A stretch of DNA of 39,331 nt from Thoreauomyces humboldtii. Its lineage: Eukaryota; Chytridiomycota; Chytridiomycetes; Spizellomycetales; Powellomycetaceae. The number at the start of each line of letters is the position of its first letter. Positions within the stretch are counted from its first letter, which is position 1. The notes beneath the pieces are model-generated. The model worked only from the letters and a program-made list of their open reading frames with translations. It searched no databases and was not told the origin of the DNA. The translations under genes were made by a program, and so were the position numbers. Below, piece after piece: positions 4,182 to 21,346 of this stretch. The stretch is taken from assembly GCA_027596035.1 (NCBI GenBank), contig JADGJA010000126.1, positions 1 through 39,331 of the forward strand, written 5' to 3'.

Positions 4182-6828
4182 TTACGCAGCGACCCTTGGT
4201 TCGACCGCTAAACTCATCGCCTGCAGTGTGCTTATGTTCATCTCCAAAGGCGGATTGGTGATGTATTCCTGCATGTCAGGATCAAAGTTCCACCACTTGT
4301 ACTCTGACCGAGCGAACGCCGTGATGCCGCGCACGCAGTCCGTCAGCAGTCGAAGTTTGTCAAAGTTGATCCGACCGTCGGGGAGACGGGAGTCATTTCC
4401 ATCGTTGATGAATGTCAGATCTTTCAAGAAGATGGCTACGTCGGAAGAAACATCCAGATGAGCATCTGCAGGTGCGAGCAAGTTGAAACTGCAAACTTAC
4501 GGAGAAATGGAAGGAGAGGTGGCGCGGCCACATCCAGACGATCTCGGTACGTCTTGAAGTTTTTCGACACGTCCGTGAACTTCTCCAGTTCCGCCAGAAC
4601 CTTCTTTTTGTTGTCCGACAAGCTCTGCGAAACGGGATGGATGAGATTGCGTAAAGCCATGAACGAAACGACACGGAAGCTTCATTACCTCCCAGGTATT
4701 TTTCAGCCTCCGCACTGGGGCAAGGCTAAGACCGAACATGATCGCAAAGGTACTGAAGTAATTTTGTGCTTCGAGACACTCCTACATCAGGACTCTCCTT
4801 AATGAGTTACCCGCGGATGGTCCGAGGTCAGTCTCTTTGCCCTCACCTTCGCCGTGACGATAAAAGTCCTCAACACCGCCGACCTTGCCTTCAGATCCTT
4901 CTTGCCCAGAATCTCACTAGCCACCCAATAGCTCTCCTTGTCGAACCGCTCGATGAAGAAAGCAAGCTGAGGAGACGTTTGTTTCCACCCCATTTGGATG
5001 AAATCGATGCCATCGATCATCCGGAACAACATGGAGTCGTACAAACACATCTGCTGAGCCAGATTGTCGGGAAGGACGTCGGGGGTTAGGAGTGACTCTG
5101 AAATGGTACGGGGTTGCTGGTTGGAGGGATCGAGGAGGTCACGAATTTGTGCGGCATGGATCTTGTACCGGGCAGTCTTAGGATAACAGAAGATCAGTCA
5201 AGTGGTCTCCCTTGGAAAGCGCTTATACAAAGTATCTTGAGAGTCACTTACCTGTTTCTCCATCGCGAGCTTCAGTGGTTCCGCCGCTACTTCTGATTCG
5301 TTGCCACGAATCAGGCCGATGAGATCGATGAGTCCAACTTTTAATCCCGCGTCCGTTGCAAAGTCGTGCCATTGCTCTGTGATCCATGTTTGAAGTACCA
5401 TGAGCCCTCTACCAGAAAAAAGCAGAAGTCTTATGTTAGTTCCTCACATCGCTTTACGACAAAACGCTCGTTTACGCACGCTTGCGTGGTTTTTTGGCTG
5501 ACGTCGTCGTTGGATTTGACGGGCTCGCCAAACCGAAGAATCTTCTGACGAAGCCACTTGAGAAGTGCGTCAGGTTCCAAGAAAGAGCGATAGGTAAGGA
5601 GAAATGTGTGAACATATCCGTCTTCAGGTACTATTGCGGCACCAAGGGAAATGCATCAGTCTCTGCAGCACACAATGGCGACCTCGTAATAGTGGACTGC
5701 CTTACCTCTCGCAGGATGTAGCAACGCATCTAACAGCTCCTCCTTTGTTCCCGCCTCTACGTTCCCACCGTTCTTTCCCGCATCTTTCAGAGCCGCTCCA
5801 GTCTTTCTACTGATGGTCCCATTACCACCACCGATACCCCCACCACCACCACCCGCCAATCCTCTCGTCGGACTCAGTTGCACGGCTTGCAGGTATTTCC
5901 CAAGTATCTCCTGCACAACAGCAGGTGTAACAGGTTTGACCAACACCTCGTTCATCCCAGCATCCAGATAGGCTTCCCTCAACTCGGGTGTAACAGCACT
6001 AGTGACCGCAACGATGGGCACCAGTCTGTTCTCTCCCAGGATCCTGGCGCCGGTAGCCTCGAAGCTCTGATCGGGTTCAGTGGGAGACGACGGTAGAGGC
6101 GAAGCCAGAGGACCGCGAGACGAGGGACGGGAGATGGAAGCGGCACGAGTTCGACGGGCGAGGGATCCGTCGGTGGATGATGGGGTGTATGCGGGTACGA
6201 CCGTCAGTGTCTTGAGTTCGGACATTAGGTTCTTCATGGATGCGCTTCGACGATCTCCTCGTATCAACTTCGTCGCCGCCCAGCCTGTCATGACCGGCAT
6301 TTCTGATCATTCCCATTCGCGGTAGGTTGATGTGATCCGTGAGTTACATGTGGATTGAAGGAGCGAAAGGATGGAACCCGCTGTCGACTCACCGATGTCC
6401 ATCAAGATGAGGTCGTATCGACGGAATTCGAGCGCTTTGAGAAGTCCTAGTCCATTTGCGAATACATCGTCTGAAGCAACGGGAAGTCAGCAGTGAGCTC
6501 CCTGATAGTTCCATGATTGTAATGTACAGCCGTTGACCGTAACAGACCGTCGGTGACGTTAACGTGGAAGAATTTCTTCAAGGATTTCTATGATCTAAAG
6601 CGTGAGCTGCCCGCTTGTCTGGTGCTCAAAGTCAATGTCGCCTTTACCGTCATGATCTTCTGGACGACCGGGTTATCATCCTTCAGAACATAGTAATCGT
6701 TAGGCACCTTATCGCACGATAGCTCATGACCCTCAACGGGACCGTACCACGATAGCCACTCTGAACTCTTTGAAGTCTTTCCCAACAATCGAGCTAGGAA
6801 ACACATCCACAGATTTCCGTCGAAACAT
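4182..6828 (-). CDS. Response-regulator receiver domain fused to RasGEF_N and RasGEF
   Basis: Proposed exons on the minus strand: 6828-6748, 6680-6648, 6587-6548, 6470-6393, 6302-5706, 5630-5480, 5408-5252, 5176-4847, 4781-4689, 4624-4501, 4435-4182, giving 645 aa. Residues about 20-215 form a CheY-like receiver: acidic pair DDN at 28-30, phosphoacceptor Asp76 in LILMDIEMPVMTG, switch Thr178 in VAVTSAV and Lys200 in VLVKPV. A Gly-rich linker leads to RasGEF_N (262 to about 385; YVHTFLLTYRSFLEPDALL, then LQTWITEQWHDF). The RasGEF catalytic domain follows (about 416-640: FIERFDKESYWVASEIL, ACQ-like EAQNYFSTFAIM, LPFLPIFLKDLTFI, GRINFDKL). RasGEF domains release GDP from Ras-type GTPases. The exon 6302-5706 alone carries the second half of the receiver and the first helix of RasGEF_N, so the fusion does not depend on splice guesses. 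The small exons 2-4 are the least certain part. Confidence 0.86.
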
Positions 6829-7500: not shown

Positions 7501-10500
7501 CTATTTAGCAGTGATGGTCTTCCTCTCGGTTTCCTCCTCCATCGCCATCTTCGCCTTTATCTTCTCCCAGTCCACTTCCACCTATTCGTTTTCGTGACAG
7601 CGGATCGGTTAGCTCTCATAGCAATAGTGAGGAAGACCGAACAGGAAACTCACGTTTTGCGCATACTGTACGAATTTTCGATTCGTCTCTCTCCTGCCGA
7701 CTGCCTTCAGGTACTTTTCCCGATAGTAGAGCACGGTGTCTACGTGGGTTTTGTACTTTATCGCTAGTTCCAGTGCTCTGTCGAACGGAGGTAAGTGTCA
7801 GAGTTCCATAGATACAAAGATCAAATTCTTGGTTGAAGTGTGTCTTCACGTACCTTTCCCAATTGAACAACCCGATCCACATCTTGATGGCCCTGTATGT
7901 CATGTTGGCGGCCAGCAGGATGTTCTCCGCCTCCGTCGGTCGTCTCCTTAGGAGCGCCAGTTCGGCGGCTCGACCTTCGGCGGACGGTATGTCGCGGATG
8001 TAGACTATATAGCGAACTTTGGATATCTCGTCGATGGCAGCGTAGGCTACTTCCGCTGTGTTGAGATCTTGTCCGAAGACGGCCATGGCCGCTAGGCATG
8101 CCCATAGTTCTTTCATCTAAGAGAAGGATTTCAGCATGGGAAGGGGGAGGGAGCGGGTGAGGAAGAAACGACCTACATCCACATATCGACACAGTCGGAT
8201 GGCTTCTTCCCATTGCTTTTTTCGAGCGTGTTCTTGCAGGAGAGCGGGAAGTGGAGTGATGTTTGACACGGTGACGAGAGCCCCGTCCGCTCGTCGAACG
8301 GTGCATTGGGTTCCTTGGAAATTAACGATCTGGGCATCTTTCCCGAACGCACTACCCCAGGCGCCTGGATTTAGCCACGTGTTTCTCGGGTGTTTGGCCA
8401 AAAACTTCACACTTCAGCACTCACCTCCCATCCTTCTCAAACTTGGTCAACGGAGCCACGTCCTCATCCACGAAGACCACGTTCGGGTAATACCATACCA
8501 CGAACTTGTGATCCATCATGGCGACGAGGAGGTCGGTGTCGGCGTTCCATCCGAACGTCTCGACCATCGTACCGAGTTTCTTGAAGTCGGATCGGACGAC
8601 GGTGGAGATAAACATGTCCCGGTTCTTGTCCACCACCACGAGCTGTCGACCCACTGTGGACGCGGAGGGGTTCAGGGCGATCTCGGCGACTTCGGCGTGG
8701 TGCTTCACGGTTCCGGTTCCGAGGGGTCGACCCGAGTGTGTTTCGAACAGGAAGATGGCTAGGGAGAGAAATTGGTGGCTGAGTCTTTCAAGGTTTTGTG
8801 CGTTGCGGTGGAGGGAGATCAATTCAAAAAGTGATGATGTGCGAAAGACAACTCACTTTTCTCGTCCGCGCGATCCTTGACAGCCAGCACGTCGCTCGAC
8901 ACGCTGATGGTATGGACCGTAACGCATTCCGCTCTCAACCCAGTCAACCGAGGTTGACTGATCAACCTTCCCTCGTAGCTGAAGACCTGTATCCCCGTGA
9001 TCGTGTCCACAAGGACGAAATACTCTGGACACTGCTGGATACACGTCACGCGTCCATTGTTGACAACGTCGACGATGGCGGGCGTGTTCCAGTTTCGGTC
9101 GTTGTAGACGTGACATTGGGAGGATGTCGCCACGATGAGGTGCGAGAAACCGAGCGACGCTTTTACCACGCGGTCCCGGAAGTCTTGGGATGAACAATCA
9201 GGGTGAGCCCGGAATCAGTGAATAAAAATGCGATAAGAGAAGCTTTACCGAGATTCTCGGTCGCGCCTTGGACGACGTCGTGAACGTGAATTCGGTGGTC
9301 ATCGAGGATAGTAACTTCATAGTTCTTCCATTCATATCGTCTAAGAAAAAAAAAATTCAGTGATTTGCGACTTCGACCTTCAGTCGTGCCGCCTTACCGA
9401 TTGATGATATGGCCAAACACGACGGCACCGGATCCGCCAGCACAAGCCAGCTGCATGCCATCAGGGGTCCACGCAATGTTGAAGATGCTTCCACTCGTAG
9501 GCTTCTCCATCGCATATGACCACTGTGATACCTTGTCGTCAGTGCCAACACCTTGCAAGCATCGTTGCTCCACTCACACATACCCCAAGCCTATCGCAAA
9601 CTCTCAACATATCATAACTCCCCACAGCGAACATGTCTCCACTCGGATTCCATGCGATGCTCGTTATGGGATGGTCGTGGGCCGAACTGGAGTAGAGCTG
9701 TCGACCGAACGTGTCCCAAACCTTGTATCGTCCGTCTTCCCCGGCTGAGAGGATGAGACCGCTCACGAGATTCCAGTCGACTTTCAGGATCACACCTTCG
9801 TGACCTTTCCATTGCTGTGGCTTGGAACCTGGTTGGAGGGATTTGATGAGGAGGTTTCGACCGTTGGTCAGGAGGAGTTGGTCGTTGTCGGGTGACCATG
9901 CTATCGAATAGATTGGGTATCCTGTTCATGCGATTTACGGGAAACTTCAGCTAGATGATTCCGTTCCAACGCTGGCGAACTGGGCCGAAACTCACCGGTC
10001 TGTATCAGAGAGGATCGAAGCATCCCACTTCGTGACCAGATCTTGACGTTTCCGTCCTCTCCCGCTGAACGCCGCCCAATCAACCACCTGATCAGTCCAC
10101 ACTCCAGCAGGGCTTGCTGCCTGCCTTCTCTTATCACTCACCAGTGACGAGGGCGCTCGCTTCATTGTTCCACCTCAGACACAGCACGGCGCCTTTATGT
10201 GCCTCGACCTCCTTCTCGACCCTCCCGGCCTTGGAACACAGATAGAATTTTCCTGACCACGTCGTAACACGCAGAAACCATCAGCACCGGTTCCCTCCTG
10301 GATCCCATGGTCGAAGCCGATCTTTTCGTCTGCTCACCGTCCGTTCCACCCAACGCGAACACCTCGGCCGTCTGTCCCTTCCCAGGTGCGACCGGAACCC
10401 AGTGCATCTCGGTGGCGTCCACGTCCGACTTTGGCGAGTCGAAGAGAAGGGTAGGGACGGGACCCAGTGGGTCACCGTCTCCGGACCACCGAAAGATCTT

Positions 10501-14446: not shown

Positions 14447-17170
14447 CTACAAAACATCGATCCTCCACGCCGCAACAGCAGCTAAAGCCTCCACGGCACC
14501 ACGAGCCACCGCCGTGTTCTCATCCCTTGCCAACCTCTTCAACCCGTCCAGCGCACCAGCCGCCACCATGATTTCGGCCATCCCCTTCTCGACAGCCGCC
14601 AGGTTCTTGACGCACTCGACTCCCCTGTGATGGATCTCGGACGCTTCCTCTCGCGACAACCCAGACGCGGCAGACGGGGGGGCCAGGAGACCCACCACGA
14701 TCTGCACGCCTCGAGTGATGGTCGGTCCGGGAGAGACGGCGTCGCGTCGAGTCACGACAGCGGTGGACGTTGTTTTTCCGTCCCGGTCACCTGGAGCGTT
14801 CGCCCCGAACGTCTCAGCGACGATCCTCCTACACGCCGTCGGCGACGAGCTCAGGATGGCGATGGCACCCGCCGCGGCTCTCCTCGTGGCGAAATCCTCC
14901 GCGTCCGCCAAAGCCAGCAGGATCTTGAACGCTCCCGCCGACGCACCGACCTGGGCGACGGCCGTGGCGTCGCCGGCGTAGGCGGCGAAGACGGTGGGAT
15001 CGAACATCATGTTGCAGATGGCTTCCGCCGCCGCTCGACGGACCATGTCGTGGTCGGCGAACAGGAGTTCCTCGAAGGCTCGGATGCCGCCGGCGTGGAC
15101 GATCCGAGCTCGGATGTCGTCGTTCATGGATCCGAGGTTCGTGAGGGCCATCAGGGCCTCGAACTGGGCGAGTTGGTTGGTGACGGGTTGGGAGGGTTTG
15201 GCGAGTGGAGTTGTTGAGGACGATGAGGAAGAGGTGTGTTGCGTGGTGAGGAGGGAAAGGAGGGGTCGAACGAGGTCGGCGGCGAGGTTGGACTGGAAGG
15301 CGTGGTTCGGATTGACTGTGATGGCGATCTTTGCGATCGCATGAGCCGCAAGTCTTGCACCTTCTTCGCTTGCAGTGGATTGATCTGTAGAACGTGCGAG
15401 TTCGACGAGCCCTCTCGCGGCTCCTTGTTGCACCAATACGCTATGGAGCTTTCGATTCGTGGCAAGGCTACAAAGGATCTGCGCGACCAGATCCTGGATG
15501 CGAGGAGATGCGTTCTCGCCCTTCTTCACGAGGGCGAACATGGCGGGTACGCAGCCGTGCTGTACCACCTTGATGCCACGTACCATGACGCGAGCATCCG
15601 TGTCTAGTTCGGCGTCCGGGTCGTCGGTCACGCTGGTATCCTTGGCCATCTTACGCAGGTTCTTGACTTGTTCTTCCTCTTGCGACAGTTTGCGACGGAA
15701 ACCCGTGATGCTGGCAAGGACGGTCAGGAACCCGAAGGCCAGGCCTCGATCTGATTGCATGTAGCGCACGGACGTTGGCAGGAAGGTCGGATGAGAGGTT
15801 AGGTGGTCTTTCACGCGAGGTTGGATGCTGAGATAGGCGAGTCCTTCCATGGCGCGCAGATGTGATTGAGTGTCGACCTTCGTGTCAGCGAGGACGGCGA
15901 TGAAAGCATCCACAGAGGCCATAGCGTTCACGTCGACCGTCTGAGACAAGTCAGTGTTGGATGCGACGAGCTTGGTAAGCGTGACGGAAGCCGCGCTGCT
16001 TAACCGCACGTCCCTGCTTTTTGCCATGTCGTTCAAGAAGGACATACAGTGTGCGCTGACGAGATCTCGATTCGTTTTCTGCGTGCACGCATTAGAGAGA
16101 ACTTCGAGTAGTGCCAGCTGCGTCGAAGGCGCATCCGATTCGACGCAGTCGACCACCGACTCGAGGAGTCCTGGCACTGCGAAAATGGCTGATCCATATT
16201 CGTCGTTGGCTTGCATGACGGCCGAGAGCGCGAGTAAGCCCTTCGTCTTTGTCTTTGGAGACGAAGAGTCGATGCATCGCGTGATTTCCGTAGCGCAAGC
16301 CTCACGAACCGCCTTTCGGTTGCCTTCGGTGACGACCTGCTCGAATATCCGTACCAACGCGGCAGGGACTAGGCCTTTGATGTTCTCGTTGGGGTCCAAC
16401 ACAAGGTCGAACAGGGCGCTGCCGTGTGCCTGGATCAAGCCCATCCCGATTGCCTCGTTGGCTATCGTCTTGATGAGGGCACCAAAGGTAGCTACGCGAA
16501 GCTTATCGTTCTCCGAGGTCCTCAGACGACGCGTTAAAGCGGCGGCAATTCCCCGTGCCTGCACGATGGGAAAGTCGGTCACATTGGCAGCGTCTGCGGT
16601 AGATGCAAGCAGCACCGTAGACGCAAGAAGGTCTACTACGGGGAGCGCAGTCAAGTCGTTCGGATCATCGCCAAGCAGCGCGTCCACCGAGCCTTCCGTC
16701 AACAGCACCAGAGCCCGAACGGCAGCCGGTGGATCGCGCGACAGTTGCCGCAGGACTCGCAGAAGTCCGCTCTGCAGTGCCTCGGACTTGCCGCTCGTCC
16801 GAGCAACTTGGAGCAGCTTGGTCATCACAGCTTCCAAGGCTCCGTCCTGCAGCAATCGCGCCGCGGCCCCCGAGTCCGCCGACAGGGAGGCCAAACGCTG
16901 AGCGGCATCCACCGCCTCTTTCTCCTCTTTGCTGTTGAGTGCGGTCAACAGAGCCGATGTGGTCGTCGCGGTCTGTTCTGCGCTCTTCTTCGCGGACAGC
17001 ACGAGAAGGTCACGCATGGCGGTGACGACATCCTGGTTTGTGCGATCGATGGCCAGTGCCGACTTTAGGTCTGCTAGGGCGAGGGGGTATTCGCCTTGGG
17101 CTTTGTGAGCTTCGGCCTTTGCGAGAAAGGCCAAGGTTGCGACGTGGGCCTTCTCCAGATCTGCCGTCAT
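14447..17170 (-). CDS. UNC-45/She4-like UCS-domain myosin chaperone (armadillo repeats)
   Basis: An uninterrupted frame of 907 codons. UCS proteins bind myosin motor domains and, through TPRs when present, Hsp90. Residues 1-60 hold one TPR-like unit (AHKAQGEYPLALADLKSALAID). The rest is a superhelix of Ala/Leu-rich armadillo-type repeats, including QFEALMALTNLGSMNDDIRARIV, AAAEAICNMMFDPTVF and, near the end, CVKNLAAVEKGMAEIMVAAGALDGL. Length and C-terminal motifs fit the UNC-45/Cro1/She4 group, though the N-terminal TPR block is shorter than in animal UNC-45. An alternative start is a 28-base first exon at 17256-17229 joined by a 68-base intron (17228-17161) into the same frame, giving 913 aa. 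Armadillo proteins of other function are the main alternative. Confidence 0.82.
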   Translation of the reverse strand: MTADLEKAHVATLAFLAKAEAHKAQGEYPLALADLKSALAIDRTNQDVVTAMRDLLVLSAKKSAEQTATTTSALLTALNSKEEKEAVDAAQRLASLSADSGAAARLLQDGALEAVMTKLLQVARTSGKSEALQSGLLRVLRQLSRDPPAAVRALVLLTEGSVDALLGDDPNDLTALPVVDLLASTVLLASTADAANVTDFPIVQARGIAAALTRRLRTSENDKLRVATFGALIKTIANEAIGMGLIQAHGSALFDLVLDPNENIKGLVPAALVRIFEQVVTEGNRKAVREACATEITRCIDSSSPKTKTKGLLALSAVMQANDEYGSAIFAVPGLLESVVDCVESDAPSTQLALLEVLSNACTQKTNRDLVSAHCMSFLNDMAKSRDVRLSSAASVTLTKLVASNTDLSQTVDVNAMASVDAFIAVLADTKVDTQSHLRAMEGLAYLSIQPRVKDHLTSHPTFLPTSVRYMQSDRGLAFGFLTVLASITGFRRKLSQEEEQVKNLRKMAKDTSVTDDPDAELDTDARVMVRGIKVVQHGCVPAMFALVKKGENASPRIQDLVAQILCSLATNRKLHSVLVQQGAARGLVELARSTDQSTASEEGARLAAHAIAKIAITVNPNHAFQSNLAADLVRPLLSLLTTQHTSSSSSSTTPLAKPSQPVTNQLAQFEALMALTNLGSMNDDIRARIVHAGGIRAFEELLFADHDMVRRAAAEAICNMMFDPTVFAAYAGDATAVAQVGASAGAFKILLALADAEDFATRRAAAGAIAILSSSPTACRRIVAETFGANAPGDRDGKTTSTAVVTRRDAVSPGPTITRGVQIVVGLLAPPSAASGLSREEASEIHHRGVECVKNLAAVEKGMAEIMVAAGALDGLKRLARDENTAVARGAVEALAAVAAWRIDVL

Positions 17171-17527
17171 GGGTCAGTTGGGTGCGGGGTGACAAATGCG
17201 ACCGTTTTTGCGATTCGAATTCTCTTACATGCCTGCTGCAGCGTGGGGCGTGACATGAGTGGAGGAGGAGAAGGAAGCCTGCAGAGGCCCCCCTTCGTCG
17301 TGGTGGTTGTCTGCTTCCTTCAACATTGCGAATGGTCCCAATGGTCGTTCGCCGTGTTGCGAATTGACACTTTACACAGTCTCGTCCTCTTTCTGCTGAC
17401 GGCTCGAGCGTTTTCGACAGACCTCGTTCACCTCTCCTGGTCTCCTGGTCTCTCTCGTGTCGCTCTCTCTCTCTGCGCTCTGCTCTCTCTCCTACTGTTT
17501 GTGCTCAACTGGGACCTCCACACTGGT

Positions 17528-19292: not shown

Positions 19293-20149
19293 TTGGCCAT
19301 TTATATTTTATTCTGGATGGAGCTCGTCGTTCCCTTTCGACCGCTACTGGATCATCACCGTTTACCATCTGGATCGGGGTTATCCGTGTGGGGTGCCCTT
19401 TGCTTATGCAAAATGCTGCCGTGCGGAAAACTCTCAACAATGGCATGTAAATAGGATTTGTTGTATGGACATCATTCCAAAAAACAAACCCCCGCCCCAA
19501 TCGTCTACTACTTAAGTATCTTGATGGTCCCGCTCATGTTGCTCGCAAATCTCATCGCTGTCGAACCATCCGCAGAGATGTCTTCCGCGCTGGGCGGACG
19601 GACTCGAAGTTTTCCCGGCGGGGGACAACGGCGTTCTTCCGGTTTCCTCCTCACGTACGGTTACGGTCGACTCCTTCCTCTAGCGTCGAGTGTTTTGGGC
19701 TCAAAGGACTGCTTCTGTGTGGGATTCTCCCTTTTTTTTGTTCCTTGTTGTGTTTCAGCGTTGTGCACCCCTTCCCGTAGGAAAAATAGTCCAACGAAAA
19801 AAGGTGAAAAAGTTTTTGATGCCCTCACCACGGCCATGGGACAAAGAATGGAGGCTCTACTGTACTCTCAAACAACGGAAGAGAAGGTCCTTCTGCCCCA
19901 GTGGGGTTCGTTCGTACGCGGACAGCGTTCGGGGAACAGTCGAAATTTCTCTTTTGGTCGCCTGAAAATAGAGTGTGTCTTCATGCAAACGCAGATCCCA
20001 TTGAACGAGATGAATGGAGCAAGGCTATATAGGGGGCACTCTTTGTTCAGCGCCTCACTTCTTTTGTGCCGAGGCCATCGCAACCTTCCGTTCTATAAAG
20101 GAACCGCGCTTATCGACTTGGTCCAGTCGGCATCAAACCAAAGCATACC
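19293..20149. other. Intergenic: elongase 3' end and protease promoter
   Basis: No supported gene. Open frames on both strands are short and unlike known proteins. The 3' part carries TATA elements for the protease. Confidence 0.5.
20025..20099 (+). promoter_or_regulatory. TATA elements of the aspartic protease gene
   Basis: CTATATAG at 20025-20032 and TATAAA at 20094-20099 lie about 120 and 51 bases before the start codon at 20150. Clear TATA boxes are rare elsewhere in the window, which fits an inducible secreted enzyme. Confidence 0.55.
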
Positions 20150-21346
20150 ATGAAGCTCTCGATCCTCTCTGTAGCAACGTTGCTCTGCGCCAGCACTTCC
20201 GTCTCGGCAGCCCCAACCACCACCGTCTCGACCTCGACCACCGACGCTGTCCATGTCCCACTCACTCGAACCGTGGGTCGCGTCGCCCCCGCCCAACGCG
20301 TAGCAGCTCGCCACGTCGAACGCATCGCAAAGGCCAAGGGCGTCCCGCTCGGCGACGTTCCGTACGGCGGTTCCCGCGACCAGTTCTGGAACATCCCTGT
20401 CACCGTCGGCAAGAACCAGAACTTTCAGTTGTGTCTGGACAGCGGGTCTTGGGACATCTGGATCCGTGGAGCGAACTGCGTGTCTCCCGACACGTCGTGC
20501 GGTCCCACTCGTCCTCACGTCAACGTCTCGGACCCTCATCAGTTCAAGAACACGACGCTTAGTTATAAGGTCGGTTACGCGTCAGGGTATTCCAACGGTT
20601 CCATCGTTCAGGGTGACTACACCATCGGTTCCATGACGGCAAAGAACGCCTACTTTGGCGTATCTCGCTTCGAGGCCGACTTTGACGAGATCATCGACAG
20701 CGGGATGATCGGTCTCGGTTTCCCATCCCGTTCCAACATCGCCACGCAGACGAACGGAAAGGGACCGGCGGCGGCGCTCGGCGTCACCAGCTTCGGCATG
20801 TACCTTCAGAACAGCGAGGACGGAGATTCGGGTGTCCTCACCTTCAACGGAGTGGACGAGACAAAGTTCCACGGCGATCTATCCTACCACCCGGTCCACA
20901 ACGTGACGCAGGGTTACTGGTCCCTCTCCACCCTCAGCAGCACCGTCTCGCTCGGCAAGGTCCTACCCGCCACGCCCATCACGGTGGACTACTCGATCGT
21001 CGACAGCGGCACGGCCGGCATCCTTCTGGGAACCACGGAAGCCAACGCGATCATTTCCCACTTCAACGTGACGTCGGACGGATACATCGACTGCGACGTG
21101 GCTCGGACCGGTCCGGACCTCACCATCAGGCTCCAGGGTCGTCCCTTCGTGATCCCGGCTTCCATGTACGTCGTGAGGGGGACCGTCGAGTCGCCGCAGT
21201 GTTCGTTGGGGATCTACGGTGGCGCGGACAACGTCTACGGTGGGGTCCTTGGTGGTCCCTTCCTTCGTGCGTATTATGCGTACCATGATTACAAGAACTT
21301 GAGGATGGGCTTCGCGAAGGCGATCCACCCGAAGGCAAGGGCGTGA
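20150..21346 (+). CDS. Secreted pepsin-like aspartic protease (family A1)
   Basis: A single exon of 398 aa. Residues 1-20 form a signal peptide (hydrophobic core LSILSVATLLCA, likely cleavage after VSA). A Thr/Ser-rich propeptide follows to about residue 70. The two catalytic motifs are DSGSWDIW at Asp97 and VDSGTAGILLG at Asp285; both are DSG, whereas the first is DTG in most pepsins. A Cys pair (110 and 117) follows the first active-site Asp, and several N-glycosylation sequons are present (NVS, NTT, NVT). The C-terminal block GGVLGGPFLRAYY matches the conserved end of A1 proteases. It likely digests external protein as a saprotroph or parasite. The lack of introns contrasts with most neighbours. 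Confidence 0.93.
   Translation: MKLSILSVATLLCASTSVSAAPTTTVSTSTTDAVHVPLTRTVGRVAPAQRVAARHVERIAKAKGVPLGDVPYGGSRDQFWNIPVTVGKNQNFQLCLDSGSWDIWIRGANCVSPDTSCGPTRPHVNVSDPHQFKNTTLSYKVGYASGYSNGSIVQGDYTIGSMTAKNAYFGVSRFEADFDEIIDSGMIGLGFPSRSNIATQTNGKGPAAALGVTSFGMYLQNSEDGDSGVLTFNGVDETKFHGDLSYHPVHNVTQGYWSLSTLSSTVSLGKVLPATPITVDYSIVDSGTAGILLGTTEANAIISHFNVTSDGYIDCDVARTGPDLTIRLQGRPFVIPASMYVVRGTVESPQCSLGIYGGADNVYGGVLGGPFLRAYYAYHDYKNLRMGFAKAIHPKARA

What the first reader, a model, noticed from the sequence alone, without database searches (positions are those of the whole stretch)
4182..6828. Two-component receiver domain fused to a Ras exchange factor
One reading frame links a receiver domain with all key residues (DDN 28-30, Asp76, Thr178, Lys200) to RasGEF_N and RasGEF. 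The linking exon (6302-5706) is a single open frame holding receiver motifs and the first RasGEF_N helix. I know of no described protein with this order. It would let a histidine-kinase phosphorelay switch Ras on directly, without a MAPK or transcription step.
Basis: partly seen in the sequence, partly recalled or inferred. Interest (0 to 1): 0.85.

Follow-up and report, generated by a model that had tools for sequence, protein, structure and literature searches.

The report
Chytrid receiver domain fused to RasGEF
A chytrid fungus carries a protein that joins a phosphate-receiving signal domain of bacterial type to a domain predicted to switch on Ras-like proteins; related chytrids have the same joined protein, which suggests, but does not prove, a direct wire between two signalling systems usually seen as separate.

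Summary
On the minus strand 6828-4182, eleven GT-AG exons give one 645-aa frame, identical to a deposited hypothetical protein of Thoreauomyces humboldtii: Response_reg, RasGEF_N, RasGEF. DDN28-30, D76, T178 and K200 are as stated.

It is very unlikely to be an artefact. The architecture is in 10 of 76 proteins found with the RasGEF half, from five chytrid genera in two orders. T. humboldtii has a second copy, again with receiver end and RasGEF_N start on one exon. Fusion rows form one clade in the GEF tree (SH-aLRT 98) and the receiver tree (93/95). The receiver shares two introns with an unfused response regulator of the same genome, and the GEF half shares introns with an RBD-RasGEF: a fusion of two native genes.

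Most likely it is a response regulator whose output is a Ras-family exchange factor, controlled in cis by phosphorelay. Phosphotransfer, direction and GTPase substrate are inferred. No structure could be predicted. Ten paper searches found no description, but one survey's table of enzymatic fungal regulators was not open to me.

The parts
6748..6828 (-). exon 1, start codon and first receiver strand (residues 1-27)
   Evidence: spliced model; N-terminus aligned in P0002-P0004 and P0007
6648..6680 (-). exon 2, holds DDN 28-30 (6680-6672)
   Evidence: intron after residue 38, phase 0, also in the unfused regulator on C1 and in copy 2
6548..6587 (-). exon 3, receiver helix 1 to strand 2
6393..6470 (-). 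exon 4, receiver to the phospho-acceptor Asp76 (codon 6399-6397)
   Evidence: D76 in 9 of 9 fusion proteins of alignment A2
5706..6302 (-). exon 5, the linking exon: receiver C-half (T178 at 6003-6001, K200 at 5937-5935), linker, start of RasGEF_N (5763-5706)
   Evidence: same single exon in copy 2; pN below pS in the receiver C-half and the RasGEF_N start
6046..6249 (-). about 68-residue low-complexity insert (residues 96-163) between receiver helix 3 and strand 4, with a conserved Arg-rich Ser patch (residues 128-135, 6153-6130)
   Evidence: alignments; insert placed by comparison with own-genome and bacterial receivers
5480..5630 (-). exon 6, RasGEF_N
   Evidence: donor GTGCGT chosen because it keeps the frame; the result equals the deposited protein
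5252..5408 (-). exon 7, RasGEF_N end and stretch before RasGEF
4847..5176 (-). exon 8, first part of RasGEF (domain 418-590 starts at 5062)
4689..4781 (-). exon 9, RasGEF
   Evidence: intron before it (phase 0) shared with the RBD-RasGEF on C43
4501..4624 (-). exon 10, RasGEF
4182..4435 (-). exon 11, RasGEF end (residue 590 at 4352-4350), conserved C-terminal tail and stop

Best explanation
This is a chytrid response regulator whose output domain is a CDC25-type exchange factor. A histidine kinase passes phosphate through an HPt protein (Ypd1-like) to Asp76. The receiver then changes its contact with the attached RasGEF_N-RasGEF module and so alters the rate at which a Ras-family GTPase loads GTP. 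The gene probably arose once, by fusion of the receiver of a native chytrid response regulator to the catalytic half of a chytrid RasGEF of the RBD-RasGEF kind, before Rhizophlyctidales and Spizellomycetales separated, with a second copy in this genome. Shown: architecture, intact receiver residues, full-length GEF match, conservation, one clade in both halves, relatives of both parents in the genome, HisKA and HPt matches. Inferred: phosphotransfer to Asp76, cis control of the GEF, the substrate. Direction is open; I lean only slightly to phosphorylation releasing an autoinhibited GEF.
For: Pfam domains in order, and the same three families in 6 of 6 other fusion proteins scanned, the receiver being just under the cut-off in one truncated model, P0005. 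Same architecture in 10 of 76 RasGEF-half hits; in none of the 76 do the listed domains include both a receiver and an RBD. DDN in 7 of 7 models that reach it, D76 and K200 in 9 of 9, residue 178 T in 8 of 9 and S in 1. One clade in both halves. Second copy with the ten junctions of copy 1 plus one extra intron. pN below pS on both sides of the junction. Shared introns with both parents. In the own genome 2 HPt, 17 HisKA (16 over the cut-off), 51 Ras-superfamily and 12 cyclase exon matches. Precedents: the hypothesis that Ssk1 binds its target by an alpha3-beta4 insert (PMC8510515, section read), and RomR/RomX acting as GEF for MglA in Myxococcus (PMC11580455, passages).
Against: No RNA, phosphotransfer or exchange data. 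The residue three before K200 is Val or Ile in all 9 fusions of A2, not the aromatic residue used in many bacterial receivers, so the classical signal path may not apply. The GEF tree has long branches for P0121 and P0123 and puts Gaertneriomyces outside Rhizophlyctis plus the Powellomycetaceae rows, which does not follow the taxonomy. In the receiver tree the fusion clade has bootstrap 93, under the tool's bar of 95, and the unfused regulator's highest plain identity is to a bacterial receiver (43% over 115 columns) although its nearest rows by path are fusions.
Confidence: 0.62

Rival explanations
1. The receiver is a docking or dimerisation module. It binds Ypd1, kinases or itself and places the GEF, but phosphorylation does not set exchange activity.
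For: Residue K-3 is aliphatic in 9 of 9 aligned fusions. A long variable insert with one conserved Arg-rich Ser patch could bind partners or be a target of another kinase. No assay links the domains.
Against: The catalytic receiver residues are kept in five genera, while insert and linker diverge between the two copies (pN 0.53 and 0.51 against 0.19 in the receiver C-half). A pure scaffold would be free to lose them.
Confidence: 0.2
2. The exchange factor acts on Rap or another Ras-family GTPase, so the protein would not feed the classical Ras-cAMP or Ras-MAPK route. (This rival concerns the substrate only and can be true together with the main reading.)
For: Best solved relatives are Rap guanine nucleotide exchange factor 4 (E 9.7e-34; Epac2 is its recalled name), then 2ije (4e-31), yeast Cdc25 (1.7e-23) and SOS1 (about 4e-22); one Geranomyces fusion is deposited as Rap guanine nucleotide exchange factor 6.
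Against: Sequence rank among these is a poor guide to substrate, and the deposited name looks automatic.
Confidence: 0.3
3. Two neighbouring genes or an assembly or annotation error were joined.
For: The homologous proteins appear to be gene predictions from genomes; P0005 and P0008 start inside the receiver, and P0003, P0004 and P0006 lack or scramble exons. No RNA was available.
Against: The linking exon is one open frame with both domains in two diverged copies of one genome, with pN below pS on both sides, and the architecture is in proteins of five genera.
Confidence: 0.02

Closest known systems
Fungal Ssk1 response regulator (Sln1-Ypd1-Ssk1)
   Same: Fungal receiver fed by HPt, with a Pro/Ser-rich alpha3-beta4 insert and a signalling enzyme as target (PMC8510515, section 10 read).
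   Different: Ssk1 acts in trans on Ssk2 at the start of a MAP kinase cascade; here the target enzyme is attached and is an exchange factor. An own-genome receiver that resembles Ssk1 (C368, resemblance recalled) does not group with the fusion.
Chytrid RBD-RasGEF (e.g. SPPG_03749 of Spizellomyces punctatus; C43 in this genome)
   Same: Homologous RasGEF_N-RasGEF half, 39% identical over 97% of it for SPPG_03749, shared introns for the C43 gene.
   Different: P0126 and P0131 carry RBD (Ras-binding) domains before the GEF and no receiver.
Epac (cAMP-controlled Rap GEF)
   Same: Exchange factor of the same family with a built-in switch; RAPGEF4 is the best solved match of the catalytic part. Its name Epac2 and its autoinhibition are recalled, not from a call.
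   Different: The switch is a cyclic-nucleotide domain (recalled), not a receiver.
RomR/RomX of Myxococcus xanthus
   Same: A response regulator takes part in GEF activity towards the small Ras-like GTPase MglA (PMC11580455 and PMC4316618, passages).
   Different: Bacterial and a two-protein complex; I did not compare its sequences, and any likeness is of logic only.
RegA (receiver-phosphodiesterase)
   Same: Receiver attached to a signalling enzyme; Physarum RegA relatives are described in PMC4758236 (passages).
   Different: Output is a phosphodiesterase, not a GEF.

Membership tests
Receiver domain (Response_reg, PF00072) | Profile match over cut-off | tested here: met
   64.4 bits against cut-off 30.2, two stretches around the insert
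Receiver domain (Response_reg, PF00072) | Acid pair, phospho-acceptor Asp, Thr/Ser, Lys | tested here: met
   D28 D29 D76 T178 K200; conserved in relatives
Receiver domain (Response_reg, PF00072) | Accepts phosphate from HPt or kinase | not testable with these tools
   needs purified proteins
CDC25-type Ras exchange factor (PF00618 + PF00617) | Both profile matches in order | tested here: met
   RasGEF_N 52.6 bits (cut-off 28.3), RasGEF 179.4 bits (cut-off 23.1), profile positions 2-181 of 181
CDC25-type Ras exchange factor (PF00618 + PF00617) | Exchange activity and substrate | not testable with these tools
   no assay; best solved relative is RAPGEF4; single catalytic residues were not mapped
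Known fungal response regulator classes (Rim15, Skn7, Ssk1, Srr1) | Class-specific partner domain (kinase in Rim15, DNA-binding domain in Skn7; recalled) | tested here: not met
   Pfam lists only Response_reg, RasGEF_N and RasGEF up to E 0.1; class list from PMC8510515
Known fungal response regulator classes (Rim15, Skn7, Ssk1, Srr1) | Receiver kinship to named class members | not tested
   only own-genome and bacterial receivers were in the tree
Chytrid RBD-RasGEF | RBD domain PF02196 before the GEF | tested here: not met
   absent from the fusion; fusion rows are a separate clade

The most novel reading that the evidence does not exclude
A new class of fungal response regulator, present at least in Spizellomycetales and Rhizophlyctidales, in which a histidine-kinase phosphorelay directly sets the GTP loading of Ras or a close GTPase in one protein, with a second input (a basophilic kinase such as PKA or Sch9) at the conserved Arg-rich Ser patch inside the receiver insert that would close a Ras-kinase feedback loop.
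Probability: 0.35. Interest if true: 0.8.

Novelty: new variant of a known kind. Interest (0 to 1): 0.62.

Why it matters
The named fungal response regulator types are Rim15, Skn7, Ssk1 and Srr1, plus unclassified ones (PMC8510515, passages). A receiver built into a Ras-family exchange factor would be a direct wire from two-component sensing to small-GTPase signalling in a eukaryote. It can be tested in vitro with a few purified proteins, and its logic (a receiver controlling a GEF in cis) would be a natural model for how phosphorelay and GTPase switches can be joined.

Tried and rejected
Gene-model error: made very unlikely by the second copy and by homologues. Gain of a bacterial receiver: argued against by an unfused native regulator that shares two introns with the fusion and groups with it at 99/99 against 8 bacterial and 8 own-genome receivers; the alignment kept columns of the insert, which may add to that grouping, and the regulator's highest plain identity is to a bacterial receiver, 43% over 115 columns. 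First exon-6 donor: out of frame, replaced. A wider search with an alignment of nine fusions gave no new fusion in the 120 listed of 609 hits, and did not list three of its own members (P0008, P0121, P0123), so absences from these searches carry little weight. Paper searches for the combination gave nothing on point. Of their hits I opened passages of PMC4758236, PMC11580455, PMC4316618, PMC6066546, PMC2566311 and PMC2699053 and of PMC8510515; none of these passages describes a receiver-RasGEF protein; the other listed papers I saw as listings only. In one search the printed residue ranges are low by one.

Full report
WHAT IS THERE. The window is contig C31 of a 20.7-Mb assembly in 823 contigs. 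The protein encoded at 6828-4182 (-) is identical to hypothetical protein HKX48_001148 of Thoreauomyces humboldtii, whose longest contig is 39331 bases, the window's length. That species is a chytrid of Spizellomycetales, Powellomycetaceae. Eleven exons with GT-AG introns of 60-90 bases give 645 aa. Pfam finds Response_reg (24-95 plus a second stretch, 1.3e-17), RasGEF_N (258-347, 6e-14) and RasGEF (418-590, 8.2e-53).

IS IT REAL. Three lines say yes. First, relatives: a search with the whole model (209 hits, 120 listed) gave P0001-P0008 with receiver plus RasGEF, and a search with residues 250-645 gave 76 proteins, of which 10 carry PF00072 (P0001-P0008, P0121, P0123). They come from Thoreauomyces, Geranomyces (two species), Rhizophlyctis, Fimicolochytrium and Gaertneriomyces, that is Spizellomycetales and Rhizophlyctidales (Geranomyces was not looked up). 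P0006 has no PF00618 in its list and lacks the first receiver half; P0005 and P0008 start inside the receiver; P0003 and P0004 have a scrambled or missing exon in the GEF. Second, the same genome holds a second copy at about 39-80% identity in its main pieces: eight exons at the right end of contig C589 (13572 bases) and four at the left end of C214. The C589 piece has receiver and RasGEF_N, the C214 piece RasGEF. It has the ten junctions of copy 1, one of them across the gap, plus one extra intron in the receiver, and its receiver end, linker and RasGEF_N start again lie on one exon. Third, between the two copies the linking exon shows pN/pS of 0.19/0.86 in the receiver C-half (57 codons) and 0.29/0.60 at the RasGEF_N start (18 codons), against 0.51/0.61 in the linker (25) and 0.53/0.68 in the insert (50) (synonymous sites near saturation, ranges in that output low by one residue).

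WHERE IT CAME FROM. For the GEF half I had 81 segments (76 plus 5), dropped 9 (P0003, P0004, P0006 for damaged models; P0176, P0177, P0183, P0188, P0192, P0209 as short) and built a tree of 72. The 7 fusion rows are one clade, SH-aLRT 98 (quick method, no bootstrap; long branches for P0121 and P0123; Gaertneriomyces falls outside Rhizophlyctis plus the Powellomycetaceae rows, against the taxonomy; the place of the clade among RasGEFs is not settled). For the receiver, 24 rows (7 fusions including copy 2, one unfused regulator, 8 of the 33 own-genome receiver matches, 8 bacterial receivers) give the fusions as a clade at 93/95, and fusions plus the unfused regulator on C1 at 99/99 (the regulator's highest plain identity is 43% over 115 columns to a bacterial receiver, its nearest rows by path are fusions). 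The C1 regulator is a receiver followed by a long tail without Pfam domains. It has introns after the residue that matches T38 (phase 0) and inside the codon that matches E78 (phase 1), as in the fusion, and lacks two other introns of the fusion's receiver. The RBD-RasGEF on C43, 80-83% identical to P0131 over the catalytic part, shares with the fusion the introns at TAK|E (phase 0), PFL|P (phase 1) and before the VIAAF/GLMVLQTW helix (phase 2); a phase-1 intron in the RasGEF_N loop lies within about three residues of the end of the linking exon; two fusion introns (after residues 379 and 520) are absent from it (read by eye). So the gene looks like a fusion of a native receiver and a native RasGEF, most simply made once.

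HOW IT MOST LIKELY WORKS. The receiver keeps its active site in the relatives: DDN in 7 of 7 models that reach it; D76 and K200 in 9 of 9; residue 178 T in 8 and S in 1. P0006, aligned apart, has D76, T178 and K200, and copy 2 has DDN and the acceptor D. The genome has 2 HPt matches, one with the sequence LGHFLKGSSAALGL, which I recall as typical of Ypd1, 17 HisKA matches, 16 of them over the cut-off, 51 Ras-superfamily matches and 12 nucleotide-cyclase matches; these are exon matches, not gene counts. From this I infer a relay kinase - HPt - Asp76 - RasGEF, with control in cis. The direction is not known. The receiver has an insert of about 68 residues between helix 3 and strand 4, variable except for an Arg-rich Ser patch, RRTRAASIS here and RRRAASIS or similar in relatives, which looks like a basophilic kinase site (motif knowledge recalled). 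Ssk1 receivers have such inserts, and the authors of PMC8510515 hypothesise that Ssk1 binds its target with it (section 10 read). The residue at K-3 is Val or Ile in 9 of 9 aligned fusions, and Val in copy 2 and in the C1 regulator, so the usual aromatic switch is absent. The GEF half is best matched by RAPGEF4, then 2ije (guanine nucleotide-releasing protein), Cdc25 and SOS1; I leave Ras against Rap open.

WHAT IS KNOWN. PMC8510515 (abstract, passages and section 10) surveys 670 fungal receivers from 51 species, names Rim15, Skn7, Ssk1 and Srr1 types,% of response regulators outside known groups, and says that a few carry putative enzymatic domains in a Table S4 that I could not open. Its main text has no hit for 'ras' or 'guanine'. 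The other paper searches showed no receiver-RasGEF protein in their listings or in the passages opened; the library holds open-licence papers only. The sequences are public but named hypothetical, RasGEF-domain or, once, Rap GEF 6, and UniRef begins one name 'Response regulatory domain-co'. So the architecture sits in databases and I found no description of it.

LIMITS. Protein searches score at most about 8000 candidates, and one search missed members of its own query, so the taxonomic range is a minimum and absences mean little. No structure model and no RNA were available. All functional steps are inference.

Noticed in passing
C589:11887-13534 (+) and C214:91-1159 (+) of the same assembly (L047, L048): Second receiver-RasGEF copy, apparently one gene cut by the gap between two contig ends.
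   Followed up: yes
C1:134249-136347 (+) (L049 2750-4848): Unfused response regulator with the closest receiver found in this genome and a tail of about 450 residues without Pfam domains, ending two bases before the contig end; shares two introns with the fusion.
   Followed up: partly
window 6153-6130 (-): Arg-rich Ser patch conserved inside an otherwise variable receiver insert; looks like a target of a basophilic kinase.
   Followed up: partly
window 7619-8852 (-): Neighbour gene looks like IFT80, a flagellar transport protein (Pfam TPR_IFT80_172 and Beta-prop_IFT80_2nd on two of its frames).
   Followed up: no
window 14450-17173 (-): 908-aa open frame with UNC45-central and Arm matches.
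   Followed up: no
window 20099-21343 (+): 415-aa frame of a eukaryotic aspartyl protease.
   Followed up: no
G000:C368:16698-17057 (L006): Receiver that looks like Ssk1 (recalled resemblance, not tested), so the canonical output may coexist with the fusion.
   Followed up: no
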